This document shows positions 26,238 to 49,324 of a DNA stretch of 64,000 nucleotides, piece after piece. The DNA is from Ramlibacter rhizophilus (GTDB lineage: Bacteria > Pseudomonadota > Gammaproteobacteria > Burkholderiales > Burkholderiaceae_C), in assembly GCF_004681965.1 (NCBI RefSeq), contig NZ_SMLL01000002.1:186001-250000 (forward strand). The letters run 5' to 3'. The translations under genes and the position numbers were made by a program. The notes under the pieces are model-generated. The model saw nothing but the letters and a program-made list of their open reading frames with translations. It made no database searches and was not told the DNA's origin. Within the stretch, counting starts at the first letter, position 1, and every line of letters begins with the position of its first letter.

Positions 26238-26359
26238 CAGCAAGGGGCAGGACAACCGCGACGGCATGCCGCCACATCCATGGCGCGAGTTGGAAGCCTT
26301 GAAGCGAGGCCGAAACCAGTAATGCCTCTTCGTCAGCGAATCGACACTACCAGACCAAG

Positions 26360-26596
26360 TCATTCCCTTGGCCCGTTCTCCGCCTGTGCGTCGTTGATCA
26401 GCTGTCCTATCCGGGCGAGCTCTTTGAAATCCTGGCGTTCTTCACCATCCAGCATCCGATTCCACCCCCAACACCCTATGAGCAGCAGGAGCCCGATCGA
26501 AACGGTCACCATCGTCGCTTGGTCCTGAGACCTCGCCCAGAGCACCAGACCGATGGCGCCGAGGAAAACCACGCTGAGAACAACTGGAGAGCGCAT
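26360..26596 (-). CDS. small membrane protein (hypothetical)
   Basis: This 78-residue frame starts at ATG 26594-26596 behind a GAGGTGG site. It encodes two hydrophobic segments (VVLSVVFLGAIGLVLW and TMVTVSIGLLLLIGCWGW) and a charged C-terminal tail. The hydrophobic pattern and ribosome site speak for a real gene lodged between the two convergent recombinases. No family is recognised. Confidence 0.5.
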   Translation of the reverse strand: MRSPVVLSVVFLGAIGLVLWARSQDQATMVTVSIGLLLLIGCWGWNRMLDGEERQDFKELARIGQLINDAQAENGPRE

Positions 26597-26664
26597 GACC
26601 ACCTCACCGATGAGCGACTATGCCGCGCTCCGGGGGTTGGGGCAAGTTCTGACCTGGATACGGC

Positions 26665-28239: not shown

Positions 28240-28322
28240 CCAGCCTGAGTAACCGCCTCGCCTCTCCAGTTCCACTCGTTCTGACCGGGGCCATGTCGCA
28301 GTTCAGCTGATAACCTCGACGA

Positions 28323-31515: not shown

Positions 31516-32549
31516 ACTTGAACTATGAAAAGGCGCCTGCGATTCTGAAATTGGCGGGGCCAGTTGTCTATGGCAGTTTTGACCCGGAAGCCGACCTCAA
31601 AGCGGGTCGAAGAACCCGACGACTTCCTCCGGGCGGCCCTGGCGCGAGAACCTGTCGAAGTCTGCCCCCATCGACGGCCTGCCTCCCGTGTGACCAGCCA
31701 GTTCGGAGAAGCTGGCGCTCCTGCTCACACGCTGCAAGCATGCGCGCGGACCGCTTCTCTTCATCCCCCTCTGTCTTCCCGAGCGGTCACGGACTGCTCT
31801 ACAGTCTCGGCGCCAGCGCTCGGCTCGGGCGTGCCTTGTTGCATTCTCCCGGAGCCGGCAGCCGGTTTGTCACTTTCGTTCTGGCCGGAAAGCAGCCATC
31901 GCGCAACATCTCGCCGGGCGAGCGGACCGCTGCGTTGAGCCTGTCCTGTTTTGGTCCTGTTGGCAGCCGCTACTCCCCTGGTCCGCGGACGCACGGAGCC
32001 TCAATCCGTCGGTGCGGCCTGAGCGCCCTACGATTCAGTGCTTCTGAACCGAAACATGCATGGCAGCAGCGGTGCCCGGCCTAGCAAGAAGCAAAGCGGC
32101 AGCGGTGGCCTGTACCACGCACCGCCCAGAACGTGCCATTATTTTCCCTCCTGGCGGAGTAGTGCATAGCGGCTCCCTGCGCGCGGCACATGGCAATCAC
32201 CTCATCGAGTTTTAAACAGGACCGCCACGCCTGTTCCTGGTCAACAGCAGAGTTCGTACTCCATGACCAAGGTCCCACAGGAAACGGCGAAGATAAGCGC
32301 TAAGCGACTGCTGTTGACGGGAGCAATAGACCTGGCCGCAACGTGACACCAGCGTCTGGCAACTGCAGGGCACTTGAGCTCAGCTGAACGTGGTATGCGA
32401 ACTTACTTCAGCCTGACCTTCATATCCGACCATCTGTGCATTTCTCGGCCAGTACGAGGCGGGCTTAACCGGTCCTGCCCTCCGCTGAATCTCACTGAGG
32501 ACTGCTCCGGCAGTAAGCTGCCGCTCCCACCTGAACGTGCGAGTACTTG
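31516..32549. other. about 1 kb with no well-supported gene
   Basis: Open frames exist (plus 31518-32084, minus 32081-32278) but lack clear motifs. A plus-strand stretch near 31570-31650 reads MAVLTRKPTSKRVEEPDDFL and then RAALAREP, which resembles the start of small plasmid CopG-like proteins. It does not continue as one, so it may be a remnant. The minus frame 32081-32278 (65 codons, LDEVIAMCRAQGAAMHYSARR) could be a small gene. The promoter of the following methyltransferase gene must lie here. Confidence 0.35.
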
Positions 32550-35162
32550 ATGGAAGAAGTCGGGAAGCGCGTAGTAGATGAGCTCTACGTCCATCTGTCC
32601 GCCTTGGACGCCCTCGCCCATGCCGACCACCGGCTGGCCATCCAAAGCGCCCTTGCACGCCTGCCTGCAAATGCAGCGCCGGACGTCGCCAAGCTCAACT
32701 TGCGCTCGAGGCGCGTGTCGCTACTTTCATATCCGCGCTTTCACGAGGAAGCATTCCCAACCCTAGCAGCCAGTTGGGCGGTAGCGCCGGACTTGGCGAC
32801 TGCACCAGTGTTCAGATCGTATGACGCCAGTCTGAATCCACCGATCTTGCATCGCAAGGAGCTGCTCGTCAAAAACGACCATCCGCAGCGAGAAGCCTGG
32901 GTGCGGCTCACCCAGCAAGCGGAAGAACTCGGGCTGTTTTCGGAGACGACAACGATCGGCTTCAAAATGAACTGGGAACGACTGATCGCGCAAAACGGCT
33001 ACACCATCGACGGTCAGGTGTTGGCTCCCCTTGGCAATGTCATTCCTGATGGAGAGGACGGCGATCTCAACGCAGAAGTTGGCGTCGTACAAAGACATCT
33101 CACTGCACTGCATCGACAAGCACTCTCCGCGCCGATGCAGCTTTTGATGCGACACGGGTTCTTTACGCTTGGCTGCACCGTATTCGATTATGGATGCGGC
33201 CGTGGCGGCGACATCACGGAGCTGGAAGCAGCAGGTATCAACGCGCGTGGCTGGGACCCGTACTACGCGCCGCACAACACCCGTGTCCCAGCAGACGTGG
33301 TGAACCTCGGGTTCGTCATCAACGTAATCGAAGATCCAGCCGAGCGCGTGTACGCGCTTCAGTCTGCGTTCGCACTCGCTTCCACCGTCCTCGCTGTGTC
33401 CGTGATGCTGTATCCAGCCGCGCCCCCAGGCCGCCGCTTCGGCGACGGTTTTCTCACCTCGCGCAACACATTTCAAAAGTACTTCAGTCAGCCCGAGCTC
33501 AAAGACTACATCGAGCACGTTCTTCATCGCGAACCGCACATGGTCGGGCCTGGAATCGCTTTTATCTTCGCCAGCGAATCCGCCGAGCAGCAGTTTGCCG
33601 CCGGCCGCTGTCGCACCAGTGACGTATCCAGACGACTCATCGCGCTTCGGGCCCGGCGCGCTCCACAGCCGCCGACCAGCGACAGCAGCACCCGCACTCG
33701 TGCGCTAAGCAGTCCGCCCAAGCAGCTCGCGGCAAAAAAACCACTGTCAGAAAGGAAACCGAAACTGGACCGCTTCGGGCGCGCCAAGCCAATCTTAGAT
33801 GTGCTTTGGCGCGATGCGCTGGAGCTTGGACGCATTCCCGAAGTGGACGAAGTGTCTGTCGATCTTTTTCAACTGGAAGCGGCGGCTGGCAGCGTTGGGC
33901 GCGCGTGGGCGCTGATTCGCCGCCACTATGATCTATCGCTGCTTGAGGAGGCTGCCAAGGTCAGAAAGGACGACTTGCGACTTTTCATGGCAGTGCGGGC
34001 GTTCAGCAAGCGGTCAAACTACGGCCAGCTCGAGAAGCGGCTTCAGCGCGACGTACGGGCCTTCTTCGGCAGCTACGAGGCCGCTAGGCAGGCCGGCATC
34101 ACGCTGCTTGCGCAGGCTGGTTCGACCGATGAAATCCTTTATGCATGCAAGCTCGCGGCTGCTAACGGCTTAGGTTGGCTCGATGACGAGCATTCGCTGC
34201 AATTGAGCATGGGCTTAGTCGACCGCCTGCCAGTTGTTTTGCGCGCCTACATTGCATGCGGCCTTGTACTCTGGGACAGCGTTAGTGAAGTGGACATGGT
34301 CAAAATCCACATCACGTCAGGCAAGCTGACTCTGCTTGAGCACTACGACTTCGACGGCCCGATACCAGAGCTGAAGCGGCGCGTGAAGGTGAACATCCGC
34401 AAGCTCGACTACTCAATCTTTGAGTACGGCGAAGCGCACTCAGAACGCTCCTGGCTTTTTCCTAAGAGCCGCTACCAGCATGAGGATCTACCGAACTATG
34501 CAAGACAATGCGCGATCGAGGAGCAACTTAGGGTCTTCTGCTGCATCAGCGAAACCGAACAACATCGCATTCAGCTGCCACAAATAACAGAAGACTTGGA
34601 AGCAAAGCGACTGCAGATTGAGGGACTATCGCTCGTTCCGAGCACAACCATTCCCGAACTCGACGCACGCTGCGGTGCACGCTATACGTTCAGAGATTTC
34701 ATCGAGTGTGGCCAGACTCAGAAAAGCTTGGGGATCCGCAACGTGCCGCTTCGGCCGGAGTCGTACAACGCACTGCAACAACTTGCGGTGTATATAATTG
34801 ACCCGATTGTCGATTACTTCGGGAGTATCGAGCTCACGTACGGCTTCTGCTCGTCAGCCCTGGCCAAATGCATCGAATCGCGAATTGCGCCGAAGCTAGA
34901 TCAGCACGCCAGCTGCGAACACAACGCCCGAGGACAACCAATCTGTGCTCGGGGTGGAGCCGCTTGCGACTTTCTCGTGCGTGATGAGGACATGTTGGAG
35001 GTTGCACGCTGGATCGCGCAGAACCTCCCCTTTGATCGGCTGTACTTCTACGGGTCAGACAAGCCGCTGCATGTGAGCTACTCGTCCGCACCAGTTGGGG
35101 AGATCTACCACATGTCTGTCTCTGCGGTTGGGCGGCTGTTCCCACGACGGCTGGAACTTTGA
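32550..35162 (+). CDS. DNA phosphorothioation-associated putative methyltransferase
   Basis: This 870-residue protein begins MEEVGKRVVDELYVHLSALD. The N-terminal 180 residues (KLNLRSRRVSLLSYPRFHEE, SYDASLNPPILHRKELL) and the central SAM-binding region (VFDYGCGRGGDITELEAAGI, GWDPYYAP, ADVVNLGFVINVIED) match the dnd-linked methyltransferase family as I know it. The target is not established. The remainder (about 380-870) is long and unrecognised. ATG 32550 is preferred over the adjacent TTG. It is convergent with dndE; a perfect hairpin overlaps its last codons. Confidence 0.85.
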   Translation: MEEVGKRVVDELYVHLSALDALAHADHRLAIQSALARLPANAAPDVAKLNLRSRRVSLLSYPRFHEEAFPTLAASWAVAPDLATAPVFRSYDASLNPPILHRKELLVKNDHPQREAWVRLTQQAEELGLFSETTTIGFKMNWERLIAQNGYTIDGQVLAPLGNVIPDGEDGDLNAEVGVVQRHLTALHRQALSAPMQLLMRHGFFTLGCTVFDYGCGRGGDITELEAAGINARGWDPYYAPHNTRVPADVVNLGFVINVIEDPAERVYALQSAFALASTVLAVSVMLYPAAPPGRRFGDGFLTSRNTFQKYFSQPELKDYIEHVLHREPHMVGPGIAFIFASESAEQQFAAGRCRTSDVSRRLIALRARRAPQPPTSDSSTRTRALSSPPKQLAAKKPLSERKPKLDRFGRAKPILDVLWRDALELGRIPEVDEVSVDLFQLEAAAGSVGRAWALIRRHYDLSLLEEAAKVRKDDLRLFMAVRAFSKRSNYGQLEKRLQRDVRAFFGSYEAARQAGITLLAQAGSTDEILYACKLAAANGLGWLDDEHSLQLSMGLVDRLPVVLRAYIACGLVLWDSVSEVDMVKIHITSGKLTLLEHYDFDGPIPELKRRVKVNIRKLDYSIFEYGEAHSERSWLFPKSRYQHEDLPNYARQCAIEEQLRVFCCISETEQHRIQLPQITEDLEAKRLQIEGLSLVPSTTIPELDARCGARYTFRDFIECGQTQKSLGIRNVPLRPESYNALQQLAVYIIDPIVDYFGSIELTYGFCSSALAKCIESRIAPKLDQHASCEHNARGQPICARGGAACDFLVRDEDMLEVARWIAQNLPFDRLYFYGSDKPLHVSYSSAPVGEIYHMSVSAVGRLFPRRLEL

Positions 35163-35177
35163 CCCAGCCGTCGTGGG
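35141..35177. terminator. bidirectional hairpin between methyltransferase gene and dndE
   Basis: CCCACGACGGCTGG (35141-35154) and CCAGCCGTCGTGGG (35164-35177) are perfectly complementary over 14 bases with a 9-base loop. It covers the last codons of the methyltransferase and ends 6 bases before the dndE stop, so it can stop both converging transcripts. T-runs are weak on both sides. Confidence 0.7.
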
Positions 35178-35183
35178 CCGATC

Positions 35184-35543
35184 TCACGCCGCGAGCAACC
35201 CAGAGTGCTGCGTCAGCTCAAGCAACGAGCGGGACTTTCGCAGCCGCTCCAAGCCTGAGTCTATGTGGCTAGCCACGATCAACGGGACATCTTTTGCATC
35301 GAGCCTGCCGTGGACCTGCCGAAGCAAGCCTTCGAAGACAAAACCGAACTCCCCAAACAGCGTGGGCGCATTGAACTCGCTCCCGAATTCGTCGATACGC
35401 CGAGACCCTCCCCCAGCCCCCTCTTCGAGAGACAGCAGAAGCGCCATTCGGCACACCAAGTTCGGGGTCAACCCCGTGCGTCCTTTTAAGACTCGCAGCG
35501 TGTCACTGGCCGATTTAGAGATTTTGAGGCGCTTAGGCAGCAT
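35184..35543 (-). CDS. dndE: DNA sulfur modification protein DndE
   Basis: This 119-residue protein begins MLPKRLKISKSASDTLRVLK and continues GRTGLTPNLVCRMALLLSLE, which is the conserved DndE N-terminus. DndE is thought to bind nicked DNA during phosphorothioation. The start lies inside the end of dndD (11-base overlap, ATGCTGCCTAA), which fixes it; the same frame is open further upstream within dndD but is not homologous. It is the last gene of dndBCDE. Confidence 0.93.
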   Translation of the reverse strand: MLPKRLKISKSASDTLRVLKGRTGLTPNLVCRMALLLSLEEGAGGGSRRIDEFGSEFNAPTLFGEFGFVFEGLLRQVHGRLDAKDVPLIVASHIDSGLERLRKSRSLLELTQHSGLLAA

Positions 35544-37536
35544 GCTTAAGCTCCTGTTGAGTGCTCCAGAAGTAGCCCTTTGAAGCCGTGGTGCATCCTT
35601 CCGTTTCACTGAAGACCAGGTGGAAGGAATGCGAGATGTGCGGGCGCATGCCTGTATAAAAGGCTTGGTCAACCTCAGTGTCGGTTGAAAGCACGATGAC
35701 CTGATGGCTCGCCATTGGGAAATAGCTCTCGACAAGTTTGGCTCTGTGCTTGCTGTCCAAACGGCCTAGCGGGGTGTCGATGATGATGGGTAGATTTCTC
35801 CCCGAGGTCTTGGCGAGCGCTTCCAGCATCGCGATTGCGAATATCTGCTTCTCTCCCGCTGACAGTCGCTTCTTCGGCGTCTCGCGCCCATGCCGATCGA
35901 CGAGCGTTACTGCGAAGCTGTCTGGGTCGATCACTGCGTGGTCGATGATGTCTTCTTTTCGAGCAAGACGACGAAATGCAGTGACAAAATGCCGCTCAAG
36001 CGTCTTGCATTTCTCGCGCGCCGCGCGGGCCTTATACAGCTCAATCAACTCCTGCACCTTCTGGGCTGTCTCCTCGGCCCGAGAGTCTCCGTCTACCCGT
36101 TCGAGCTGCTCTTCGAGCTGGCGGCGCCTTCGGAGAAGACCAATATGATTCATCACCAAAGCTCGCAGCAGCTCGAGGCGCCGTCTCTTCTGAGCTTGCG
36201 CCCGGGCGAGCTCGGCGGCAGCAGCTTGATAGCGCTCGAACGTCTCCTGTAGGCTTTCCTCGGTAGGAGCGCGTGCAAGTTGGTCCTGAACAGCGGTGAG
36301 CTCCCCACGCAAGGTGTCCAACTTGCGGCCAAGCTGGCTGACCTTCTCCTTGGCCAGAGGCAGCAGCTCGAGCAAACTCTCCTCCAGGCGCCGAACATCA
36401 CTTGTTGCGAACCCATGCAGTGGCGCCGAATTGCTGGACGGGGTGCCAAGCCCCGAGACCCACGCGTCGACACACTGCTTGGCCTCGGGTGCAAGCGCAG
36501 TTCCTCGCAGTGCGGAGTCAAGCATCTCCTTAAGTTGCGCGGCTTTAGCAGACACTGCGACGAGTGCCGCAGTTTCCTCTTGCGCCTTCTGCTCCTTTTT
36601 TGCCTCCGAGAGCAGGGTCTTGCACATTACGGGCGCGAGGGCAAAGACGCTTAGCCCAGCGAACTCTTCGCGCAGCTGCTGCTCCGCTTCTGACTGCTCC
36701 TCCTGAAGTCGATCCAGCCTTGCTTCAAGCGCCTTTCGATCAACTGACCATCCGCCGCCGCGCTCCGTCAGTGACGCCTTCGCGCGTGACACTTTCTCCT
36801 GGGCTGCTAACACTACACGCGTGCAGTTGCCTTCCAACTCGGCTTCGCCTGCTTTGATCTCTGCCTCAACCTTCTGGATCAGCGCGCTCACGTCTAGCAG
36901 TTCGCTCCTGCTACGGCCTGCAGCGCCTTGAAGCCGACGCGCTCGCAGGAACACCGCAAGGTCGCTTCGCAGTCGATCCGCGGTGTCTAGGCCGAGCAGA
37001 CGCCGGATCGCATCGGACAAAACTGTGTCTGCATCGTCCTTGGCCAAGGCGGCGATCTTCTCGCCGTCGAAAAAGAAAAACTGAGAGACGCCGGCTGGGA
37101 TCAGCTGGCTCAGAAACGTCTGCGCGCTGTCGCCTTGCAGCAATACCGTCGCGTCATCTTCCTGACGTACGACCAGCGATTCTTCAACTGAGCTTCCCTT
37201 ATCGACCCAACTACGTGTGACCTGGTAGCGGGTGCGCTTGCCAAAGCGGGAGTACACGAAGTGGATCTGCACGTGGGCGCGATCCGGCTTGATCAACTGC
37301 TGCGACGGATTGTGGATCAGTCCACGTAAGAACTCCTGGTACTGCGCCTGCGTGACGGCGCCGTCCAGCGCCTGCCGCCCGTACAGGCAATGGCGCACGC
37401 TGGTCAGAACAGTGGTCTTCCCTGCCCCGTTCAGCCCTCCAAACAGGACGACGGGGCGCCCGCGCGGCGCCAAATCGAATGCTTGCTCGCCGCGGAAGGT
37501 GCCGATGTCGCAAAGGACTAGTTTCTCAAGCAGCAT
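35533..37536 (-). CDS. dndD: DNA sulfur modification ATPase DndD
   Basis: This 667-residue SMC/RecN-like ATPase has Walker A in GGLNGAGKTTVL (residues about 32-43), followed by VRHCLYGRQALDG. A long coiled-coil middle follows (about 200-500), then the ABC signature KRLSAGEKQIFAIAMLEAL and Walker B IIIDTPLGRLDSKHRAKLVE. DndD couples ATP hydrolysis to the sulfur insertion step. The start ATG 37534-37536 (or GTG one codon earlier) overlaps the dndC end and has AGGAGC upstream. Confidence 0.95.
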   Translation of the reverse strand: MLLEKLVLCDIGTFRGEQAFDLAPRGRPVVLFGGLNGAGKTTVLTSVRHCLYGRQALDGAVTQAQYQEFLRGLIHNPSQQLIKPDRAHVQIHFVYSRFGKRTRYQVTRSWVDKGSSVEESLVVRQEDDATVLLQGDSAQTFLSQLIPAGVSQFFFFDGEKIAALAKDDADTVLSDAIRRLLGLDTADRLRSDLAVFLRARRLQGAAGRSRSELLDVSALIQKVEAEIKAGEAELEGNCTRVVLAAQEKVSRAKASLTERGGGWSVDRKALEARLDRLQEEQSEAEQQLREEFAGLSVFALAPVMCKTLLSEAKKEQKAQEETAALVAVSAKAAQLKEMLDSALRGTALAPEAKQCVDAWVSGLGTPSSNSAPLHGFATSDVRRLEESLLELLPLAKEKVSQLGRKLDTLRGELTAVQDQLARAPTEESLQETFERYQAAAAELARAQAQKRRRLELLRALVMNHIGLLRRRRQLEEQLERVDGDSRAEETAQKVQELIELYKARAAREKCKTLERHFVTAFRRLARKEDIIDHAVIDPDSFAVTLVDRHGRETPKKRLSAGEKQIFAIAMLEALAKTSGRNLPIIIDTPLGRLDSKHRAKLVESYFPMASHQVIVLSTDTEVDQAFYTGMRPHISHSFHLVFSETEGCTTASKGYFWSTQQELKHAA

Positions 37537-39040
37537 CACTGAGCTCCTGTGTCAGGCGTGCGTACTTCTGAGCGGCCGTTTGCTCCTCTTGATCTGCCGC
37601 GTAGAGCCGCTGCTTCTTCTCTCCCACCGACTTCACAAGCTCCTCATCAGCCCCCCAATCGCGAGCGAGCAGCTCTTTGATTTCGACCTGAACATTTGAC
37701 CTTCTCGCGTAGCCTTCGTAAGAGACCTCAACTTCCATTAGCTTCATGAAAAGCTGAGGAGCTATGCCGTGTTCAGCACACAAAGTACGAATCAAATTCG
37801 CTTCCTCTGCACCGAAGATGAAGTCATCGGTCCCTTGCCACTGGCGCGCCTGAGACGCACCCATTACCTCGTCAAAAATCCGTGGGACGGAGTCGTCCCA
37901 ATCGGGCTCGTTAGGGTCTTGACGCCACTCAACTCGGATCTGCTCCAGCTCATCGTGCGTGATGAGCTCGTAGGCTTCGCCAGGATTATTCTCGTTAACC
38001 AGCTTCTGGTTCTCCAGCAGCTGCTTGAGCAGCTTTTTGCGAACCTCGAGCCGGTAAGGTCCAAGCACATGCTTTTCTTCGACAGGCTTTCCGGGCTCGC
38101 CAAGCTTGCCAGGCTTGTCTTGCTTGAGCACGACGGTGACAGAGCCATCGCGACGGCGCGCGCTGCGGTAATTCTTCTTCTGGTCCGGAAGAGTGGTCTC
38201 ATAAAGCTGATTTCGAAACTGCTGGAGCGGAATGAGCCAGGTATGACCGGTCTCGATCAGACCGTCCATCGCCCGATCCTTCGTGACGACGGTGCACACC
38301 CAGCATCCGAACCGAGAGTTGCCGCACGAGGGCGTCGACGAGTCAATTACGAGGGGGCACTCCCCCGCGTTTGAGTCCTTGTACAAATCAAAGAGCGCTT
38401 GATGATCGCCCCCCCAGGGAGCGGGTCCGGAAAATAGGTACTCCCAAACGTCGTCCGCGGACCATTGGTCGATGGGCGTGAAGACGTAAGCGTTAGGAAG
38501 CGTCGTGTGTCGTGCCAAGCGCGAGCCCTGAATGCGATGCTTTCGCATCACTTGCGCGCGTGAGGAGGACTCCTCAAGTCGAGACCCAAGTACAACGACG
38601 ACTTCGCCGAAGGCGGCTACCTTTTCGGTGATGAACTCGCTGACGGGGTCGATCTTCATGCGTTCAGTGCACCACCTGAATTGTCGTGTCGGCGCAGGAT
38701 AGCCTTTGCCAAGCAGATTGACCCAGAACGTCTGATCAAGCCTTGGAACCACTGGCTTGGCGACATTGAGGGGGAGCTTGAGCCCTTCGGCGGCGTCGTG
38801 CATGCTCGCCAATGTGTCTTTGATGAGATTGACGACCAGCGGAGTCTCAACCAAGGTGTCGGAAGACACCACAAAAACCGGCTTAAGCCGCTTTTCCTGC
38901 GGCAGCTCCATCAGCGCCTCAAAGACAAGCCGCACAACGGCGGTGGAATCTTTGCCTCCGCTATAGCCGATGACCCAAGGCCTCGCATCAGAAAGGTAGA
39001 TGGACGCAATGTCCGTCTTCGTTTGTTCAAGGTGCTTCAA
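37526..39040 (-). CDS. dndC: DNA sulfur modification protein DndC (PAPS-reductase-like)
   Basis: This 504-residue ATP-pyrophosphatase has the PP-loop GYSGGKDSTAVVRL near residue 28. FRWCTERMK and the downstream SCGNSRFGCWVCTVV supply cysteines that hold the [4Fe-4S] cluster of DndC. DDVWEYLFSG is another family block. It activates the DNA backbone and takes part in sulfur transfer. The start is a TTG at 39040 with AGGAGGG upstream. It follows dndB by 16 bases and overlaps dndD. Confidence 0.95.
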   Translation of the reverse strand: MKHLEQTKTDIASIYLSDARPWVIGYSGGKDSTAVVRLVFEALMELPQEKRLKPVFVVSSDTLVETPLVVNLIKDTLASMHDAAEGLKLPLNVAKPVVPRLDQTFWVNLLGKGYPAPTRQFRWCTERMKIDPVSEFITEKVAAFGEVVVVLGSRLEESSSRAQVMRKHRIQGSRLARHTTLPNAYVFTPIDQWSADDVWEYLFSGPAPWGGDHQALFDLYKDSNAGECPLVIDSSTPSCGNSRFGCWVCTVVTKDRAMDGLIETGHTWLIPLQQFRNQLYETTLPDQKKNYRSARRRDGSVTVVLKQDKPGKLGEPGKPVEEKHVLGPYRLEVRKKLLKQLLENQKLVNENNPGEAYELITHDELEQIRVEWRQDPNEPDWDDSVPRIFDEVMGASQARQWQGTDDFIFGAEEANLIRTLCAEHGIAPQLFMKLMEVEVSYEGYARRSNVQVEIKELLARDWGADEELVKSVGEKKQRLYAADQEEQTAAQKYARLTQELSDAA

Positions 39041-39056
39041 GGACCCTCCTGCAATA

Positions 39057-40130
39057 TTAAGATTTTTCGAAAGCGAGGTCTTCCGGCGAGAGCTTTAGGC
39101 CGTAGACCGTTTTGATGGAATTCGCGGTCAGCTGCACACTGGTATTTGCCTTACTCAGGCGGCCGTTTTGAAGCGCCCTGCCCTCCCAAAGGCTGGCGTT
39201 TCTTCGTGACCAATCGACCTTGCGCAAGTGCTTTACACGGCTTCGCCAATCCTTCGGGTGCGCAGCAAGAAGCGCGGAGCCCGCGATGCCTAAGGCATGA
39301 AGCGTCACACCATGTGCATGTACAAACTCTTGGCGTAGCTCCGCTGTCGAGATTTGGCGGCTGCGCGCGCGCTCCCAATCAGGAATGCTTTCCCCGACTG
39401 CTTCCCAGTAGCTTTGAGCAAGCAGCTTCTCCTCAGTGCTGACAGTCTGCCGGGAGCTGGGACCGAGCAGCGCACGGCTCGCGTGTTTGATCCCGCTTAA
39501 TGTGAAAAGCTTCGTCGAGCGATTTGATATGGTTGATTTCTCCATCTCAGTGAGGCCCTTGAAAGTGACGCAGTTCGCAGCGAGGAAGCGCGCCAACTCA
39601 GACGCGGCGTCGCGATGGTCATAGAGCGTTGAGAGGGAGTGGCTTGGGCGAACTGCGTACTTGTTCAAGTCCGCGAACATCTGCTGGCTGCGCTGCAGCC
39701 CTTCGTCGGAGAAGAACAGCACCGGCACGTTCTCTTGCCCCAGTTCCGGGCGGTGCTTGACCGCTTCCTCGATCGCAGCGCGCCGATGTTGTCCATCGTT
39801 GATGAGGATGCGAGCGCCCATGGGCACTTGGAGCATCCCCAACGGTGTATCCGCGCCACTGCTGCCGACAAAATTCACAGGACCGTCGACAGACGCGGTC
39901 AGCGCTGACAAGACGTACGAGGCTGGATGAGTAACGAGGTAGTCTGCGATCTCTGGGACCCGCGCCCGGTTCAAAGTCCTCTGAGCCCGCATCTCAGGCG
40001 GAACCTCCTCCTCGTCAAAGACGAAGATCTTAGGCACCAGCCTGAGCGGACACATTGCGATGTAAAACTCCCGTCTAGCCTGAACACCGCGCACGGCAGG
40101 AAACGAGTGGAAGTAGCTGTTTTCGCTCAT
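39057..40130 (-). CDS. dndB: DndB (DGQHR-domain protein; regulator of phosphorothioation)
   Basis: This 357-residue protein has the family motif MGARILINDGQHRRAAIEEA in the middle, preceded by VPEIADYLVTHPASYVLSAL and followed by LFADLN-like MFADLNKYAVRPSHSLS. The ParB/Srx-like DGQHR fold is typical. In other species DndB represses the dnd operon. ATG 40130 (MSENSYFHSFPAVRG) is preferred by similarity to DndB N-termini. An in-frame ATG ten codons earlier (40160) also has a fair site and would put the inverted repeat inside the gene. First gene of dndBCDE. Confidence 0.92.
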   Translation of the reverse strand: MSENSYFHSFPAVRGVQARREFYIAMCPLRLVPKIFVFDEEEVPPEMRAQRTLNRARVPEIADYLVTHPASYVLSALTASVDGPVNFVGSSGADTPLGMLQVPMGARILINDGQHRRAAIEEAVKHRPELGQENVPVLFFSDEGLQRSQQMFADLNKYAVRPSHSLSTLYDHRDAASELARFLAANCVTFKGLTEMEKSTISNRSTKLFTLSGIKHASRALLGPSSRQTVSTEEKLLAQSYWEAVGESIPDWERARSRQISTAELRQEFVHAHGVTLHALGIAGSALLAAHPKDWRSRVKHLRKVDWSRRNASLWEGRALQNGRLSKANTSVQLTANSIKTVYGLKLSPEDLAFEKS

Positions 40131-40135
40131 TTTAG

Positions 40136-40156
40136 CTTCCAAGCCCAACTTGGAAG
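40136..40156. promoter_or_regulatory. inverted repeat CTTCCAA-N7-TTGGAAG before dndB, candidate operator
   Basis: A perfect 7-base inverted repeat lies 6 bases upstream of the preferred dndB start, and a third half-site (CTTCCA) is at 40168-40173. It falls in the 116-base divergent spacer between dndB and the restriction-like operon. The spacing suggests a dimeric regulator, possibly DndB itself or the HhH/sigma-like protein. A GTTAC direct repeat (40200-40204, 40218-40222) is also present. Confidence 0.45.
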
Positions 40157-40246
40157 TCATTAAAACACTTCCAGGACTGCAGGTCAACGGAAGAGGCACG
40201 TTACCGTGGCGGCATTGGTTACGATAGCTGAGCAGGGGCGGGACGA

Positions 40247-41755
40247 ATGCAACAACTGACAACGCTAATAGTATCTTCGGGTTACGACGGGAGTACGCAG
40301 CGTCACGTTTTTGGAGATCAGATCCACCAGGCGGTGGTGACAGCTCTTCATTCGAGCTTTGAGCGCACAGCGATTCATGTGGGGTTTGGCGTACCGGACG
40401 AAAACGCAGTTCGCTCTGCGCTGGAGCAGTTGCCGCCGGGTGCCGTTGTCGCTTCAGATGCGGCGTGCGCCGTGTTTCAAGCTGAATGCAAGGTTGGCCA
40501 GCGGTGCGCGCTGCAAGCTTCTGGCCTGCAGTTCCACTATGTAGTGGGCTGGACGCGGGCTGAGACGTCCGAGCGGTCGCTGCCACCTTTTGCTTCTATT
40601 AGCCAGGCTCGCCATAGACCAAGGATGTCGTGGCTAGAAGCTTTGCACCATGAGCGACCGGAAGTTCACGCGCGCTTGCTTGCTGCGGGCGTGCAAGATG
40701 AAGACTCGTACGTAGAGCTCGACGCCGCCCTCCCGCTTCCTCTTCGCCTCGCCGTCGGACTGGCGCGCTATCGACATCTTGCTGGCGTAGAGGCTGACCC
40801 CGCCACGCTTCTTGATAACTTGAGTTGCGCACCACCATGGTTGCTCGCCCTTTCAGTCCACCAGCTAACGCTGAGCGTACGGCAAGCCAACGTGCTCAAC
40901 GAGCACAGCGTCAAGACAGTCGGTGATTTGGCGCGCTTCGGAAACTCTGGGCTCTTGAAGCTGCCTCGGATGGGGAGCAAGTCTTTGAGAGAACTTGCCG
41001 TGTTGATCTGCAACGCAATGACCGGGCGAGCAGAGGGGGTTCAGCCAGCCGAAGCCATCAATGAGGCATTAGGTTTTGCTCCTGGCGAGACGACCTTCGC
41101 CGCAGACTTTGACGTCATTGTGCGGCGCACGCTTCCAAAGCTGGAAGCGCAGGTTGTACTTGTACGCTCCGGTCAGGTGGGCGCAGGTCAAAGTCTGCGC
41201 GAAGCAGCCTCGTACCTTGGCGTAGTGGATTTGAGGCCCCTACGGCAAGCGGAGGAACGCGCAATCTCTACTCTTACAGAGCATCCGATCTGCGCGTACG
41301 TGACCCGTTTGATCACCGAGCATCTTGCCCGGCGCGCAGCCCCTCTGGAGCTCAACGCGCTCCACGTCGTTGATACATGGCTGGGCACCAACACTCAAGA
41401 TGCTGATCTCCACCGCTACTTCCTCACGAAGCTCGCGGACGATCATCTGCACTTTTGGCTGCTCGATGGTTGCTGGATAGTCAGTCGGCTTGGCAAAAGG
41501 GAATGGTATCGAGCGATCAACGCTGCGGCCTCGATGCTTGCGGACGTGCACGGCGAAGAACGGCTTCGGAGGGGACCGTCCGTCGCTCGTGCCGTGCTGC
41601 CAGATCGGGGCAGCGAGTTGCGCGATGTTCTGTTGGCGCACCTGCGCGAGCCGCATAAAGAGAGAAGTTCGCCGATTCAGACGAAGGACGCTGACCGCGA
41701 GCTCGCCTTGCGTTTGCGACGCGAAGTACTTAGACGACAGTTGGGGGTGCAATGA
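40247..41755 (+). CDS. HhH (RNAP alpha-CTD-like) and sigma-region-4-like protein, first gene of the restriction-like operon
   Basis: This is a 502-residue protein. Residues about 205-262 resemble an RNA-polymerase alpha C-terminal domain (LSVRQANVLNEHSVKTVGDL then ARFGNSGLLKLPRMGSKSLR). Residues about 300-350 (GAGQSLREAASYLGV then LRPLRQAEERAISTL) resemble the sigma-70 region 4 recognition helix pair. The N-terminal 100 residues and the C-terminus are unrecognised. It diverges from dndB and overlaps the helicase gene by 4 bases. It could be a sequence-specific DNA-binding subunit or a regulator of the module; neither is shown. Confidence 0.7.
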   Translation: MQQLTTLIVSSGYDGSTQRHVFGDQIHQAVVTALHSSFERTAIHVGFGVPDENAVRSALEQLPPGAVVASDAACAVFQAECKVGQRCALQASGLQFHYVVGWTRAETSERSLPPFASISQARHRPRMSWLEALHHERPEVHARLLAAGVQDEDSYVELDAALPLPLRLAVGLARYRHLAGVEADPATLLDNLSCAPPWLLALSVHQLTLSVRQANVLNEHSVKTVGDLARFGNSGLLKLPRMGSKSLRELAVLICNAMTGRAEGVQPAEAINEALGFAPGETTFAADFDVIVRRTLPKLEAQVVLVRSGQVGAGQSLREAASYLGVVDLRPLRQAEERAISTLTEHPICAYVTRLITEHLARRAAPLELNALHVVDTWLGTNTQDADLHRYFLTKLADDHLHFWLLDGCWIVSRLGKREWYRAINAAASMLADVHGEERLRRGPSVARAVLPDRGSELRDVLLAHLREPHKERSSPIQTKDADRELALRLRREVLRRQLGVQ

Positions 41756-43701
41756 CGCAACCCGTGTGGCGGTCTTTGAAGTCAGGGTATGCGACGCGTC
41801 ACGGCTCGCTGAAACATACTTTTTTCCTACCATGCTTTACCTGGTGCACGCGCTACCGCAGAGCAGCTGGATTCTTCTCAAGCTCCGCGCTATTGACCTG
41901 GGCTGAGGGGTTCAGAAGTAATCCAAGCCAAGACCAACTACAGCTGCAGTTACTAATATCGCCCGAACTATCCTCACCCGACAAGGCGGCATTGGAGCGA
42001 ACACTGGCCGAAGACCAATGCCGAGAAATCCTCACACGTAGCGCTGATCACCTGATCGAGTCGGTCCTCGCGCAATCCGGGTCCGATGTTGTCCGCGCAG
42101 ATTACCTGCTCTGGTTGATTGCGTCCGGACATCTGGAGCTCCGATTTGCGATCCCCGTCCACTTAAGCAATCCAGGGATGTTTCACCAAAAAATCGGCAT
42201 CTTTGACTTCGATGGAGAGGACAAGGTCGGCTTTGATGGATCTGCCAACGAGAGCGCTGGAGGTCATGAACGCAATTATGAGAGCCTGCAGGTATTTCGA
42301 AGCTGGGTCTCAGCAGATCTAGAGCGCGTGCAGTTTGTTGAGGAGGAGTTTGGCCAGCTCTGGCAAGGAGTCGACAAGGACCTGCTGGTCGAACCCTTGG
42401 GACCTTCGGTACTTGCAAAGATCAAGGAACGAGCACCAACCGCAAATCCATTTGCGCCCACGCCGCCAGCAGTGGTACAACCGCCACTCGAAGACGAGCG
42501 CTGGCGGCACCAAACGCAAGCGGCCGAGATCTTTCTTGCAAAACGCCGGGGCGTTTTGGAGATGGCGACCGGCACGGGCAAGACCAAGACGGCACTACGG
42601 ATTGCGAACGAGCTCTTCGCCCGTGGAGACATCGATTCAATCATCGTCACGACTGACGGTACAGACCTGCTAACCCAATGGTTCGAGGAGCTGGCCGAGT
42701 GGAGTTCACGACGTCCGCACAAGCTCGCCGTCTACCGTCACTTTGGAGCGATGCATGAGGGCATGCGCTACTTACTGGCGTCCAGTGGCGCCGCCCTGAT
42801 TGTTTCCAGGGCGCAACTCGCCAGATACCTGCCCCAGCTTACCGCAGCACAAAGCCGGCGCACGCTGGTCATTCACGATGAGGTCCACGGACTTGGAGCG
42901 CCCTCGCTCCGCGGCACGTTAGCGGGTATGCACCGCCAATACGGATATGTCCTTGGGCTGTCCGCCACACCAGAACGCGAATATGACAGCGAAGGCACCG
43001 CGTTCATTGCGAGTGAGATAGGCTCTGTCATCTTCCAGTTTCCCCTTGAGGAAGCAATCAGGCGAGGAATTCTTGTTGAATTCGACTATGTCCCACTCGA
43101 ATATGAGTTGACTGAAGGTGACCGAATCCGACTGAAGGCTGTATACAGCAAGAAGGCAGCGCGGCAGGCAAACGGCACGCCGATGTCGCAGGAGGAGCTG
43201 TGGACGGAGCTCTCCAAGGTTTATAAGACAGCTGAGATGAAGCCCTCGGTCTTCGACAACTATCTGGCGGACCACGGCTCGGTGCTCCAAGGGTGCATTT
43301 TGTTCGTGGAGGAGAAGTCGTACGGCGAACGAATACTCCCCATGCTTCACCAAGCGGGAGTGAAGTACAGAACCTATTACGCGGAAGACGACCGCGACCA
43401 TCTGGTGATGTTCGGTCGCGGCGAAATCGACTGCCTAGTGACCTGCCACAAAGTTTCGCAAGGCATCGATATTCGAAGCCTACGTACTGTCGTGCTCTTC
43501 TCGTCAGCCCGAGCTAAGTTAGAAACGATTCAACGGATCGGGCGCTGCCTGAGAAGCGATCCGAATAACCCATACAAGCGGGCACTCGTTGTGGACTTCG
43601 TTCTGACCGAAAACGGTGAACCCCGCGAGGGCAGCGCGGACCGGCAGCGGCTAGAGTGGTTAAGTGAGCTTTCTGAAGTGAGAAGGACAAATGCCAATTG
43701 A
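41752..43701 (+). CDS. phosphorothioation-linked restriction protein: PLD-like nuclease fused to DEAD/DEAH helicase
   Basis: This protein has 649 residues. N-terminal PLD-like domain (about 30-210) with one complete HKD motif, FHQKIGIFD (HxKx4D), followed by GSANESAGG. C-terminal superfamily-2 helicase (about 245-640): Walker A MATGTGKTKTAL, box II IHDEVHGLG, motif III LSATPER, and motif VI QRIGRCLR. I associate this architecture with the 'DNA phosphorothioation system restriction enzyme' family. It probably translocates on DNA lacking the sulfur mark and cuts it. The start ATG overlaps the previous stop (ATGA). Confidence 0.85.
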   Translation: MTQPVWRSLKSGYATRHGSLKHTFFLPCFTWCTRYRRAAGFFSSSALLTWAEGFRSNPSQDQLQLQLLISPELSSPDKAALERTLAEDQCREILTRSADHLIESVLAQSGSDVVRADYLLWLIASGHLELRFAIPVHLSNPGMFHQKIGIFDFDGEDKVGFDGSANESAGGHERNYESLQVFRSWVSADLERVQFVEEEFGQLWQGVDKDLLVEPLGPSVLAKIKERAPTANPFAPTPPAVVQPPLEDERWRHQTQAAEIFLAKRRGVLEMATGTGKTKTALRIANELFARGDIDSIIVTTDGTDLLTQWFEELAEWSSRRPHKLAVYRHFGAMHEGMRYLLASSGAALIVSRAQLARYLPQLTAAQSRRTLVIHDEVHGLGAPSLRGTLAGMHRQYGYVLGLSATPEREYDSEGTAFIASEIGSVIFQFPLEEAIRRGILVEFDYVPLEYELTEGDRIRLKAVYSKKAARQANGTPMSQEELWTELSKVYKTAEMKPSVFDNYLADHGSVLQGCILFVEEKSYGERILPMLHQAGVKYRTYYAEDDRDHLVMFGRGEIDCLVTCHKVSQGIDIRSLRTVVLFSSARAKLETIQRIGRCLRSDPNNPYKRALVVDFVLTENGEPREGSADRQRLEWLSELSEVRRTNAN

Positions 43702-43885
43702 TGAAGAACTTCGCACGGCGGTGCACCAGGCGGTCATTGCGGCACAGCAGCCGCGCTCTGTCGAAACACAGCTCCTTGCGCTACTGACCGCTTTGAGTGA
43801 AGGTGAGGTCACCGCCGAGACGCGGCTCCAGCGGGTGAACCTGCTTAAAGACGAGCTCGATTTGAGCCAGGTGCGGAGATTCTGA
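43691..43885 (+). CDS. small protein between the helicase and ATPase genes of the restriction-like operon
   Basis: This 64-residue, mostly helical protein (EELRTAVHQAVIAAQQPRSVETQLLALLTALSEGEV...) starts 11 bases inside the helicase gene and ends with TGA overlapping the next ATG (TGATG). Such strict coupling on both sides argues that it is translated. A small protein next to a CxC-motif ATPase is a recurring partner in my memory of such systems, but I could not verify this. No motif is visible. Confidence 0.7.
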   Translation: MPIDEELRTAVHQAVIAAQQPRSVETQLLALLTALSEGEVTAETRLQRVNLLKDELDLSQVRRF

Positions 43886-45858
43886 TGGATATCAAGCTCG
43901 AGAAGTGGGCATGCAGCGGCTTCCGTTGCCCCGACATGACGATCGACCTTGTCGCTGGCGACCATGTCCCGCGAGTGGCATTGATTCAGATGCCGAACGG
44001 GACGGGGAAGACGACAACGCTGACGCTGCTGAAGGCAACGTTAACGGGGACGGCGTCAGAGTGGACGCCTACCCAGCTTCAAGAAATCCGTCGGGCGGGC
44101 TCCAGTGTCGGCAAGTTCTCTGTGGACTTGCGAATCAACGAGCGGCCATTGAAGCTAGAGTTGACCTGCGACTTCGAAAGCGGTGCGGTGTCCTACACGA
44201 CGACCTCACCTGAGGTCGGTGGCTTCAACAAGGGCTGGGCCCCTCCTGCAGCAGTACGCCGTTTTCTGACGCGACGTTTCGTCGATCTCTTCGTGTTTGA
44301 CGGCGAGTTAGCTGCGAGCCTGCTAGACGCGAGAGAGACTAAGGCCGAGGAAGCAATTGAGACGCTCTGCCAACTAGACTTGCTGGACAGTGTTTCTGCT
44401 GATTGTGAAGCAGTGTGGGAGCGCGAGACCAGGTCTGGCGCAAAGAATGAAAAGGGCTTGGCTCGGTATAAGAATATCGAAGGGAAGCTAGTGCTGAGAC
44501 TTGATCTTCTCAGAAAGAATGTCGATTCAATGCGCCAGGAGTTAGCCGCAACGACAAAGAGGATCGAAGACCTGAACGCACAAGTTAAACGACTGGTCGA
44601 GCAGAACGGCCGCAACCGCGAGCTTTGGCATGAGAAGAACGGGTTGAAGCTTGAGAAAGAGCAGGCGCTTAGCGACGAACTCCGTATGCTAATGGCACAC
44701 ATGAGGCGTCCTGAGGCGCTGTGTCCTGACTTCGGCGGCTCGCTGCAAACCCTGAAAGCCAGCCTTGACAAGGTAAAGCTTCCAGACAGCACATCACGCC
44801 AATTCTTTCTCGAACTGTCCAAGGAACCGCTCTGCATTTGCGGGCGCCCAATCGGCCATGAGCAGAAGGAGACGATCCTTGGTCGCGCAGAAGAATTCCT
44901 TGGCGAAGAGCTCGCCGGAGTTCTAAACGCATTCAAGCAAGAAGTTGATCTGCTGGAGCCGCAGAGTCGATCGCTCGAGCTTCAGAAATCAAGCGAGAAG
45001 ATTTCTGAGCTGCGACACGCAATTGCGACGCTCATTTCCGAGATGACCGCGATTGAGAAGCTGTCACTTGCCGCGGCGGGGGAGGATCCAGAGAGCTATC
45101 GGCAGGAACTGATTCGATATGAGAGCAAAGCGCAGGAGCTAACTGATCAGCTTGAGGTACTCACCGGCACGGCCGCAGCCAAAGACACCGCAATGCTCAC
45201 CTCGCCGACAGAGGTGGACGATCTATTCGAGGTCGCGGCGGTGCAGCGCCAACTCAAACTCGTTCGAGAGGAGATCAGCCGGATCAACGGCACTCTAGAG
45301 CTCAGGCAACGGCTGGACCTCCTCAAGGAGATCTGCAAAGGCGCGCGAGATACGGCCAAGCTCATGCTCAAGAAAACGATTCTCGAGCGGGCTAATCATC
45401 GATTGCAGCAGGTCCTGAAGGGAGATCCGATCCAGATTAAGGACATTGATCGCTCTCTCGTTCTAGATGGACGCTCCTCCGGAAGCGCCGGGCAGAATCT
45501 TGCGATTGGGTATACGTTCTTGGCGCAGGCGCTCCACAAAGGCTCGCACGAATTTCCTTTGGTAGTTGATAGCCCCGCTGGCCCGCTCGATCACGACGTG
45601 CGACGAGAAGTGGCCTCCATGGTGCCTGGGTTGTGCAATCAGTTTGTAGCGTTCACTATTTCAACTGAGCGGGAAGCTTTTCTCGAGCCACTGGAGGCTA
45701 GCGCCGAAGGCGACGTGAAGTACATCACCGCATTTCGTAACTCTCCCGGAAACGCCTACCTGATGGCCAGATTACCTCCAGACCACGTCACCAATGGGCA
45801 GTCAAGTGTGGTGGAAGGCCGCGACTTCTTCGTCCAGTTCGCCGTCAAGGAGGAGTGA
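43885..45858 (+). CDS. SMC/DndD-like ATPase with a CxC motif
   Basis: This 657-residue ATPase has Walker A in MPNGTGKTTTL (residue about 38), a long coiled-coil middle, and a hook-like KEPLCICGRPIG (CxC, about residue 310) at the centre of the coiled coil, where Rad50 has its CxxC zinc hook. The signature is GRSSGSAGQNLAIGYTFLAQ and Walker B is LVVDSPAGPLDHD. It is related to DndD but is a distinct protein with its own operon place. It probably powers the restriction arm (inference). Confidence 0.85.
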   Translation: MDIKLEKWACSGFRCPDMTIDLVAGDHVPRVALIQMPNGTGKTTTLTLLKATLTGTASEWTPTQLQEIRRAGSSVGKFSVDLRINERPLKLELTCDFESGAVSYTTTSPEVGGFNKGWAPPAAVRRFLTRRFVDLFVFDGELAASLLDARETKAEEAIETLCQLDLLDSVSADCEAVWERETRSGAKNEKGLARYKNIEGKLVLRLDLLRKNVDSMRQELAATTKRIEDLNAQVKRLVEQNGRNRELWHEKNGLKLEKEQALSDELRMLMAHMRRPEALCPDFGGSLQTLKASLDKVKLPDSTSRQFFLELSKEPLCICGRPIGHEQKETILGRAEEFLGEELAGVLNAFKQEVDLLEPQSRSLELQKSSEKISELRHAIATLISEMTAIEKLSLAAAGEDPESYRQELIRYESKAQELTDQLEVLTGTAAAKDTAMLTSPTEVDDLFEVAAVQRQLKLVREEISRINGTLELRQRLDLLKEICKGARDTAKLMLKKTILERANHRLQQVLKGDPIQIKDIDRSLVLDGRSSGSAGQNLAIGYTFLAQALHKGSHEFPLVVDSPAGPLDHDVRREVASMVPGLCNQFVAFTISTEREAFLEPLEASAEGDVKYITAFRNSPGNAYLMARLPPDHVTNGQSSVVEGRDFFVQFAVKEE

Positions 45859-45861
45859 CAC

Positions 45862-46323
45862 ATGTCTTTCAAGCTTCGCACAGAAGTCGACGATTGGTTC
45901 TCTCGCATATACAAGGCGAAAGACTCGCCACTGTCGACAAAATTTGACTATTACTACTTGTGCCTGATGATGGGCTTTTCGCGAGGCAAGGCGACCCCCG
46001 TCACGAATGCGGTCGAATTTGTACAAAACTTTGTTCTCGATTACCGCTCAGTACAAAGCCAGATCATCGGTCTTCTGATCGCAACAGAGGCGCGCGCGCT
46101 AGGCATTGAGCTAACTAACCGGGCGCGCATCAAGGACCTGCTTTCTCGATACGTAAGTCCGGAGGCATCCGTTGCATTGACCCCTAAAGGATTTGAGAGG
46201 TTGAATGACTATGCAAATGGCGGGTTCAACGCGATTGTTGCGAGCTACCCTGAGGAACAGCCCTGGATTGCCAGCGATTTCATGCAATGGTATCAGCGAG
46301 CCATTTCAGCGCCCGTTTCCTGA
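45862..46323 (+). CDS. phosphorothioation-associated small protein (last gene of the operon)
   Basis: This 153-residue, mostly helical protein begins MSFKLRTEVDDWFSRIYKAK and contains FDYYYLCLMMGFSRGKAT, LIATEARALGIELTNRARIK and a C-terminal MQWYQRA. It lies 3 bases after the ATPase stop behind AAGGAGG, so it belongs to the operon. Size and position agree with the short 'dnd-associated' proteins described computationally. I cannot assign the exact family or a catalytic role. Confidence 0.7.
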   Translation: MSFKLRTEVDDWFSRIYKAKDSPLSTKFDYYYLCLMMGFSRGKATPVTNAVEFVQNFVLDYRSVQSQIIGLLIATEARALGIELTNRARIKDLLSRYVSPEASVALTPKGFERLNDYANGGFNAIVASYPEEQPWIASDFMQWYQRAISAPVS

Positions 46324-49229: not shown

Positions 49230-49324
49230 GTCGCCCCCCCCTGTAGTCCTCTATTGTCCTTAAGCCTACGGCCAGGTCAAGCCAGTTGAGGGGCGCTACC
49301 ATTGTGGACACTAGGAGGGGACAG

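What the first reader, a model, noticed from the sequence alone, without database searches (positions are those of the whole stretch)
32550..46323. Phosphorothioation locus paired with a restriction module that is not dndFGH
dndBCDE (minus strand) is divergent from a five-gene plus-strand operon: HhH/sigma-like protein, PLD-nuclease/DEAD helicase, 64-aa protein, CxC SMC-like ATPase, 153-aa protein. Every junction in the operon overlaps or is within 3 bases (ATGA, 11-base overlap, TGATG, 3-base gap), so it looks like one fixed machine. Known partners of Dnd are DndFGH, and of Ssp are SspE/FGH; this set resembles neither. It may be related to PbeABCD-like or other computationally noted dnd restriction proteins.
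Basis: partly seen in the sequence, partly recalled or inferred. Interest (0 to 1): 0.78.

Follow-up and report, generated by a model that had tools for sequence, protein, structure and literature searches.

The report
PbeABCD defence operon with sigma-like gene
This is a known kind of bacterial anti-virus system, which marks its own DNA with sulfur and uses the published PbeABCD genes to block unmarked DNA, here carrying an extra gene for a protein that resembles DNA-binding parts of RNA polymerase.

Summary
The reading as an unrecognised restriction module mostly fails. Four of the five genes are PbeABCD, the published phosphorothioation partner also called the CxC ABC-ATPase/DndE system: PbeA (PADLOC PbeA, 796 bits), PbeB (64 aa), PbeC (CxC ABC ATPase) and PbeD (153 aa; its model aligns best with DndE structures). 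Order and sizes match the archaeal original. The genome has no match to dptF or dptH and has iscS. PbeABCD is known to occur often without dnd. What I did not find in the text I could read is the first gene: an RNA polymerase alpha-CTD-type helix-hairpin-helix protein with a degenerate sigma region-4 helix-turn-helix. Related sigma-like genes sit in 14 of 35 PbeA loci (11 of 15 in the window's PbeA clade), upstream of pbeA, after pbeD, or at the end of a pbe-dnd run; none was found in the other 21. Seven loci also carry a RelA/SpoT-domain gene just upstream. I read it as a recruited, optional DNA-binding regulator or adaptor: a new variant of a known system.

The parts
32547..35162 (+). DNA phosphorothioation-associated putative methyltransferase (TIGR04096 family), convergent with dndE
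   Evidence: NCBIfam TIGR04096, 492.7 bits, cut-off 150
35184..35543 (-). dndE (119 aa)
   Evidence: TIGR03184 71.2 bits (cut-off 71.85), Pfam DndE 68.6 bits (cut-off 25), PADLOC DndE 92.4 bits; start
35533..37539 (-). dndD (668 aa)
   Evidence: TIGR03185 521.7 bits, cut-off 245.85
37526..39040 (-). dndC (504 aa)
   Evidence: TIGR03183 538.4 bits, cut-off 290.4
39057..40130 (-). dndB (357 aa)
   Evidence: TIGR03233 495.9 bits, cut-off 328; start
40131..40246 (.). 116-base divergent intergenic region between dndB and the plus-strand operon; presumed control region (inference)
   Evidence: coordinates; the simple sigma-70 scan found no promoter-like site in 39900-40500
40247..41755 (+). fifth gene: 502-aa RNA polymerase alpha-CTD-type HhH protein with a degenerate sigma region-4-like HTH
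   Evidence: Pfam RNA_pol_A_CTD 41.3 bits, cut-off 23.8, residues 200-250; 27% identical in a full-length alignment to a sigma factor-like protein in the CxC operon of an Aurantiacibacter plasmid
41752..43701 (+). pbeA (649 aa): single HKD/PLD nuclease motif plus SF2 helicase
   Evidence: PADLOC PbeA PDLC02703 796.4 bits; motifs HQKIGIFD 145, GSAN 163, ATGTGKT 272, DEVH 376
43691..43885 (+). pbeB-position small protein (64 aa)
   Evidence: Sp-CxC PF20304 only 14.2 bits (cut-off 27.5), but homologous to small proteins in L138 (E 6e-8) and L075 (ORF E 3e-4), which score above the cut-off
43885..45858 (+). pbeC (657 aa): CxC-type ABC ATPase
   Evidence: CIC at residue 317, Walker A GTGKTT at 39; PADLOC PbeC models up to 67.9 bits; phmmer E 7e-70 with the PbeC position of Halorubrum trapanicum
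45862..46323 (+). pbeD (153 aa), DndE-like
   Evidence: phmmer E 3e-10 with the Halorubrum PbeD position; predicted model (pLDDT 86.7) aligns best with DndE 4lrv Z 5.9 and 5wtu Z 5.0, next unrelated row 2.7

Best explanation
This is a Dnd phosphorothioation system coupled to a PbeABCD (CxC ABC-ATPase/DndE) exclusion module, with one recruited extra gene. Inferred working: the housekeeping cysteine desulfurase IscS feeds DndC; DndC, DndD and DndE put sulfur into the host DNA backbone; DndB restrains the system (recalled from the Dnd literature). PbeC and PbeD, the second DndD/DndE-like pair, scan DNA. PbeA, an SF2 translocase with a PLD-type nuclease domain, acts on DNA that lacks the mark, and small PbeB is a subunit or brake. 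The extra first gene encodes a DNA-binding protein built from parts like those by which RNA polymerase grips promoters (alpha-CTD HhH and a sigma region-4 HTH, degenerate here). It has no sigma region 2 match, so it is not a complete sigma factor. I think it most likely binds DNA near the divergent promoters, or on the target, as a regulator or adaptor of the Pbe operon. Shown here: gene identities, architecture, no match to dptF or dptH, and recurrence of the sigma-like gene. From the literature: PT-dependent protection by PbeABCD in a haloarchaeon. Inferred: activity here, and the role of the fifth gene. The confidence given is for the Dnd plus PbeABCD reading; for the fifth gene as a regulator I give about 0.45.
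For: PbeA 796.4 bits to PADLOC PbeA. Gene order and sizes match the published cassette: PbeB 66 aa and PbeD 152 aa in H. jeotgali, 64 and 153 here (passages of PMC6459918). Direct homology of PbeA, PbeC and PbeD to Halorubrum trapanicum CBA1232, a strain in that paper's PbeAC tree. CxC motif. PbeD model closest to DndE. No match to dptF or dptH in the genome, positive control rings in both; iscS present at 727.9 bits. Sigma-like genes in 14 of 35 PbeA loci, 11 of 15 in the window's clade, clustered on the PbeA tree more than in any of 500 shuffles (near-copies add to the clustering). Start/stop overlap of the sigma-like gene with pbeA: ATGA in the window, L070 and L073, GTGA in L063.
Against: The window's PbeB is below the Sp-CxC cut-off. 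TIGR04095 scores 154.8 against a cut-off of 600, so this PbeA is outside that curated subfamily. PbeD has no significant profile match to DndE and Foldseek gives DndE only E 4.2. Whether PbeABCD cleaves DNA is disputed: Xiong et al. saw intact viral DNA, while Rakesh et al. argue for cleavage, and doubt that Pbe replaces DndFGH because both often share a genome; in L078 here dptFGH and pbe lie on either side of dnd. The fifth gene is not general: four MAGs with the same layout lack it. Sigma-like genes also occur with no Pbe annotated within 9 kb on two Acidiphilium plasmids. The model of the fifth protein is poor (pLDDT 46.7).
Confidence: 0.86

Rival explanations
1. The fifth protein is a target-recognition or effector subunit of the Pbe complex rather than a transcriptional regulator: its HhH and HTH domains hold the complex on non-phosphorothioated or transcribed invader DNA.
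For: Start/stop coupling with pbeA. In the clade's other loci, where intact, the protein is large (748-1133 aa) with a long extra C-terminal region, more than a simple repressor needs. Sigma-HTH modules are reported inside defence proteins: a DndH variant (PMC10853773, passage) and BrxL (PMC12839542, passage).
Against: Not found in 21 of 35 PbeA loci (two of these, L086 and L102, are only partly assessable). In L067 it lies at the far end of a pbeABCD-dndBCDE-desulfurase run, and in L062 after pbeD, so it is not tied to pbeA.
Confidence: 0.3
2. The five genes are a distinct, previously unnamed restriction machine unrelated to PbeABCD.
For: The window's PbeB and PbeD miss curated profiles, PbeC scores modestly against PADLOC models, and a fifth gene is present.
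Against: PbeA 796 bits to PADLOC PbeA; PbeA, PbeC and PbeD all match a published PbeABCD strain in the same order; the PbeA tree places the window inside the Pbe radiation.
Confidence: 0.03
3. The fifth gene is a passenger: a mobile DNA-binding gene that happened to insert between dndB and pbeA.
For: Standalone relatives exist. It differs in type from the sigma-like proteins of the nearest PbeA relatives and is closest to the Aurantiacibacter one. Gammaproteobacterial relatives lack it.
Against: Sigma-like genes recur in Pbe loci on several branches of the PbeA tree (at least 4 label changes), in three positions, co-oriented with pbeA and mostly close upstream of it.
Confidence: 0.2

Closest known systems
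DndCDEA-PbeABCD of Haloterrigena (Natrinema) jeotgali A29 (PMC6459918)
   Same: Four-gene cassette PbeA (PLD+helicase), small PbeB, SMC-like/CxC PbeC, about 150-aa PbeD, next to dnd modification genes; no dptF or dptH match in the genome here.
   Different: Here dndB and a TIGR04096 gene are present, no dndA is linked, dnd is divergent, and a fifth sigma/alpha-CTD-like gene opens the pbe operon.
CxC ABC-ATPase/DndE-anchored systems (PMC10853773)
   Same: HKD+SF2 helicase, small protein, CxC ABC ATPase with DndE-like partner, located beside a canonical Dnd system.
   Different: In the sections and passages of that paper I read, no sigma- or alpha-CTD-like partner of the CxC system is described; its single 'sigma' mention concerns a DndH variant.
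CxC operon on the Aurantiacibacter atlanticus plasmid NZ_CP015441.1 (locus L062)
   Same: pbeA-small protein-pbeC-pbeD plus the closest relative I found of the window's fifth protein.
   Different: A site-specific DNA methyltransferase gene opens the operon and no dnd genes are annotated in the stretch; the sigma-like gene comes last, not first.
MzaA of the MZA anti-phage system
   Same: A sigma-70-like protein encoded inside a defence operon (PMC9523054, passage).
   Different: Similarity of the relatives is confined to the sigma region-4 HTH and its surroundings (at most 78.9 bits against a cut-off of 800); the window protein itself has no MzaA match.

Membership tests
PbeABCD / CxC ABC-ATPase-DndE system | PbeA: PLD/HKD nuclease domain fused to an SF2 helicase | tested here: met
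   PDLC02703 796.4 bits; PLDc_2, ResIII and Helicase_C above Pfam cut-offs; HKD and Walker motifs
PbeABCD / CxC ABC-ATPase-DndE system | PbeB: rapidly evolving small protein between pbeA and pbeC | tested here: met
   Position and 64 aa; below Sp-CxC cut-off itself, linked through homologous L138 and L075 proteins above the cut-off
PbeABCD / CxC ABC-ATPase-DndE system | PbeC: DndD-like ABC ATPase with CxC Zn-hook | tested here: met
   CIC at 317; PbeC and DndD models match
PbeABCD / CxC ABC-ATPase-DndE system | PbeD: DndE-like double-RHH partner | tested here: inconclusive
   Homologous to the PbeD position in a published strain; model best aligned to DndE, Z 5.9, next unrelated 2.7; profile comparison null, Foldseek E 4.2
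PbeABCD / CxC ABC-ATPase-DndE system | Gene order A-B-C-D in one operon beside dnd modification genes | tested here: met
PbeABCD / CxC ABC-ATPase-DndE system | Phosphorothioate-dependent protection against viruses | not testable with these tools
   bench assay needed
Dnd modification system | DndB, DndC, DndD, DndE plus a cysteine desulfurase | tested here: met
   DndB, DndC and DndD above NCBIfam cut-offs; DndE 71.2 against 71.85 in NCBIfam, but 68.6 against 25 in Pfam; IscS elsewhere in the genome 727.9 bits
DndFGH restriction module | DptF and DptH homologues in the genome | tested here: not met
   TIGR03238 and TIGR03237: 0 matches in the own genome, match in the control plasmid; DptG was not searched
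sigma-70 factor | sigma regions 2 and 4 | tested here: not met
   the fifth protein has only an alpha-CTD match in Pfam, no Sigma70_r2 or r4 match; region 4 is degenerate in the alignment
MZA system (MzaA) | MzaA-type full-length match | tested here: not met
   no MzaA match for the window protein; relatives match over the region-4 part only, 56-79 bits against 800

The most novel reading that the evidence does not exclude
PbeABCD systems of Pseudomonadota repeatedly recruit a fifth, functionally important component made of RNA polymerase-type DNA-binding modules (alpha-CTD HhH plus sigma region 4), in one subset together with a RelA/SpoT-domain enzyme. It would tie this phosphorothioation-dependent defence to transcription, for example by acting on DNA being transcribed or by sensing takeover of the host RNA polymerase.
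Probability: 0.13. Interest if true: 0.7.

Novelty: new variant of a known kind. Interest (0 to 1): 0.36.

Why it matters
How PbeABCD stops viruses is unresolved: no cleavage was seen in archaea, yet a nuclease domain is present. A recurrent extra protein built from RNA polymerase-type DNA-binding modules is a new handle on that question and gives a simple deletion test. It also shows that Pbe loci in Pseudomonadota can be more elaborate than the published four-gene cassette. The core of the finding, however, is already published.

Tried and rejected
Rejected: 'unnamed restriction module' (PbeABCD homology); dptF or dptH elsewhere in the genome; complete sigma factor.

Led nowhere: a viral-contig scan with the fifth protein matched 227 stretches but found no relative. 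Its structure model is too poor to use (pLDDT 46.7), so no fold search was run with it. The promoter scan of the divergent region found nothing. A profile comparison of PbeD with a shallow four-row DndE profile was null, and Foldseek gave nothing significant. A genome search with the whole sigma-like alignment was swamped by what look like housekeeping sigma factors: 352 of 385 genomes hit, at most the top two candidates per genome scored, and one long match, G259 (the list is cut, best first), so it is not a census. The first search with the fifth protein hit 360 of 398 genomes; apart from the window's own gene the rows listed match only around the alpha-CTD stretch.

Dropped before counting sigma-like genes: L072 (pbeA truncated), L103 (decayed locus that nevertheless carries pieces of an L062-type gene), L037 (contig of 3.5 kb), L039-L041, L088 and the weaker helicase-only matches, and L083 (same locus as L063). 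L086 and L102 are counted as 'without' although a contig end lies near. Plasmid hits H11, H13 and H16 were not opened. PbeA of 200 bits or more was found in 7 of 398 genomes of the window's phylum, its own included, and, at E 1e-60, in 8 of 385 genomes of the class of G259.
Full report
What is there. The window carries, on the minus strand, dndE (35184-35543), dndD (35533-37539), dndC (37526-39040) and dndB (39057-40130), and on the plus strand a five-gene operon at 40247-46323. A further gene in the interval, 32547-35162 (+), belongs to the phosphorothioation-associated putative methyltransferase family TIGR04096 (492.7 bits). The genome (G000, 4.59 Mb in 12 contigs) has no match to DptF or DptH, while the same profiles score 494 and 1306 bits in a Priestia plasmid used as positive control. 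DptG was not searched. It has IscS (727.9 bits), so the missing dndA need not be a defect.

Four of the five genes are PbeABCD. The 649-aa protein scores 796.4 bits against PADLOC PbeA and has one HKD motif, a Walker A and a DEVH box. The 657-aa protein has the CxC motif (CIC, residue 317) and matches PbeC and DndD models. The 64-aa protein falls below the Sp-CxC cut-off, but its relatives in L138 and L075 are above it. The 153-aa protein has no family match. It is homologous to the PbeD position in Halorubrum trapanicum (E 3e-10), and its predicted model (pLDDT 86.7) aligns first with two DndE structures (Z 5.9 and 5.0; next unrelated row 2.7). Z values of this size are not proof, Foldseek alone gave nothing significant and a shallow profile comparison was null. 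Order and sizes match the haloarchaeal cassette, where PbeB is 66 aa and PbeD 152 aa (passages of PMC6459918).

What is known about such systems. From the abstract and passages of PMC6459918: dndCDEA-pbeABCD lowered plating of virus SNJ1 about 10^4-fold; in-frame deletion of each pbe gene impaired protection; PT-modified virus escaped; viral DNA stayed intact; and 320 of 553 PbeAC pairs were solitary, only 233 having dndCD within 10 kb. From sections 16 and 17 and passages of PMC10853773: PbeA is an HKD nuclease fused to an SF2 helicase, PbeB a disordered small protein, PbeC a CxC ABC ATPase and PbeD its DndE; DndD- and CxC-centred systems occur in tandem in 936 bacterial taxa; the authors argue for cleavage or suicide action, and doubt that Pbe is a replacement for DndFGH because both often share a genome.

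The fifth gene. The 502-aa product has an RNA polymerase alpha-CTD match above cut-off (41.3 bits, residues 200-250). It aligns over its length (27% identity) with a 'sigma factor-like helix-turn-helix' protein that follows pbeD in a methylase-linked CxC operon on an Aurantiacibacter plasmid. That relative has both alpha-CTD and sigma region 4 above cut-off. In the window protein the region-4 helix-turn-helix is degenerate and not detected by Pfam. I then looked for sigma-like genes in other PbeA loci, using a profile built from twelve such sequences, the window's included. In 38 loci plus the window it found them in 16 of 39; two of these (L135, L136) are Acidiphilium plasmids fetched because of the gene itself, with no Pbe annotated within 9 kb, so the family is not confined to Pbe.

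On a tree of 35 PbeA proteins, 14 come from loci with a sigma-like gene. The label needs at least four changes, 0 of 500 shuffles were as low, and near-copies add to that clustering. In the window's own clade 11 of 15 have it. The four without are gammaproteobacterial MAGs with the same divergent dnd/pbe layout and dndB directly facing pbeA. Three of these four also show a homologue of the window's TIGR04096-family protein; in L066 none was detected. Positions vary: abutting or just upstream of pbeA (window, L063, L070, L073 and others); after pbeD (L062); and after a cysteine desulfurase gene in a co-directional pbeABCD-dndBCDE run (L067, contig end). The clade neighbours' sigma-like proteins are longer (748-1133 aa where intact) with a C-terminal region that the window protein lacks, so the window's version may have been acquired separately (inference).

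In seven of the 38 loci (L069, L070, L071, L073-L076) a RelA/SpoT-domain gene lies immediately upstream of the sigma-like gene; none was found in the window (Pfam support for L075 and L070). One viral contig, L138, carries a WYL regulator, a sigma-like gene and pbeABCD next to phage tail and head genes.

Best explanation. Dnd marks host DNA, PbeABCD acts against unmarked DNA, and the fifth protein is an optional recruited DNA-binding regulator or adaptor. The first two statements rest on family identity and published experiments on relatives. The third is inference: recurrence, operon coupling and domain content support a role with the system but do not separate transcriptional control from target binding. 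Precedents for sigma-type helix-turn-helix modules in defence proteins are a DndH variant (PMC10853773, passage), BrxL (PMC12839542, passage) and MzaA (PMC9523054, passage).

Novelty. The searches over the held open-access library gave no paper whose listing or read passages describe a sigma- or alpha-CTD-like partner of PbeABCD. The word 'sigma' was not found in the main text of PMC6459918. Supplementary tables, subscription papers and the earlier ABC-ATPase survey that PMC10853773 cites as its reference 24 were not seen, so the gene may already be listed there. I therefore file the locus as a new variant of a known kind.

Noticed in passing
L069, L070, L071, L073, L074, L075, L076 (upstream of the sigma-like gene): A RelA/SpoT-domain gene (about 360-450 aa) sits immediately upstream of the sigma-like gene in seven Pbe loci; one Rhizobium copy gives weak matches to GTP diphosphokinase and PADLOC candidate PDC-S33 models.
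   Followed up: partly
L138:5555-14583: IMG/VR contig with a WYL regulator, 1133-aa sigma-like protein and complete pbeABCD next to phage tail and head genes: apparently a phage- or prophage-borne Pbe cassette with no dnd gene found on the 15 kb held.
   Followed up: partly
window 35533-37539 (dndD): PADLOC models labelled PbeC score the canonical DndD at up to 644 bits, but the PbeC here at only 67.9 bits, so PbeC labels in PADLOC 2.0.0 probably mix DndD and CxC ATPases.
   Followed up: no
window 24594-28275: Two large serine recombinases face each other tail to tail just upstream of the locus (24594-26237 + and 26665-28275 -), suggesting an integrative element.
   Followed up: no
L067:490-12481: Rhizomicrobium electricum has pbeABCD, dndBCDE, a cysteine desulfurase and a sigma-like gene in one co-directional run.
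   Followed up: partly
L103 (G735): Decayed CxC locus that still carries pieces of an L062-type sigma-like protein.
   Followed up: no
L100 and L104: Divergent Pbe-type loci in two genomes of one genus: pbeA lies next to dndBCDE, with the ATPase gene and a 159-165-aa gene in a different order from A-B-C-D.
   Followed up: no
window 49286-50137: NYN-domain protein with an OST-HTH/LOTUS domain downstream of the locus.
   Followed up: no
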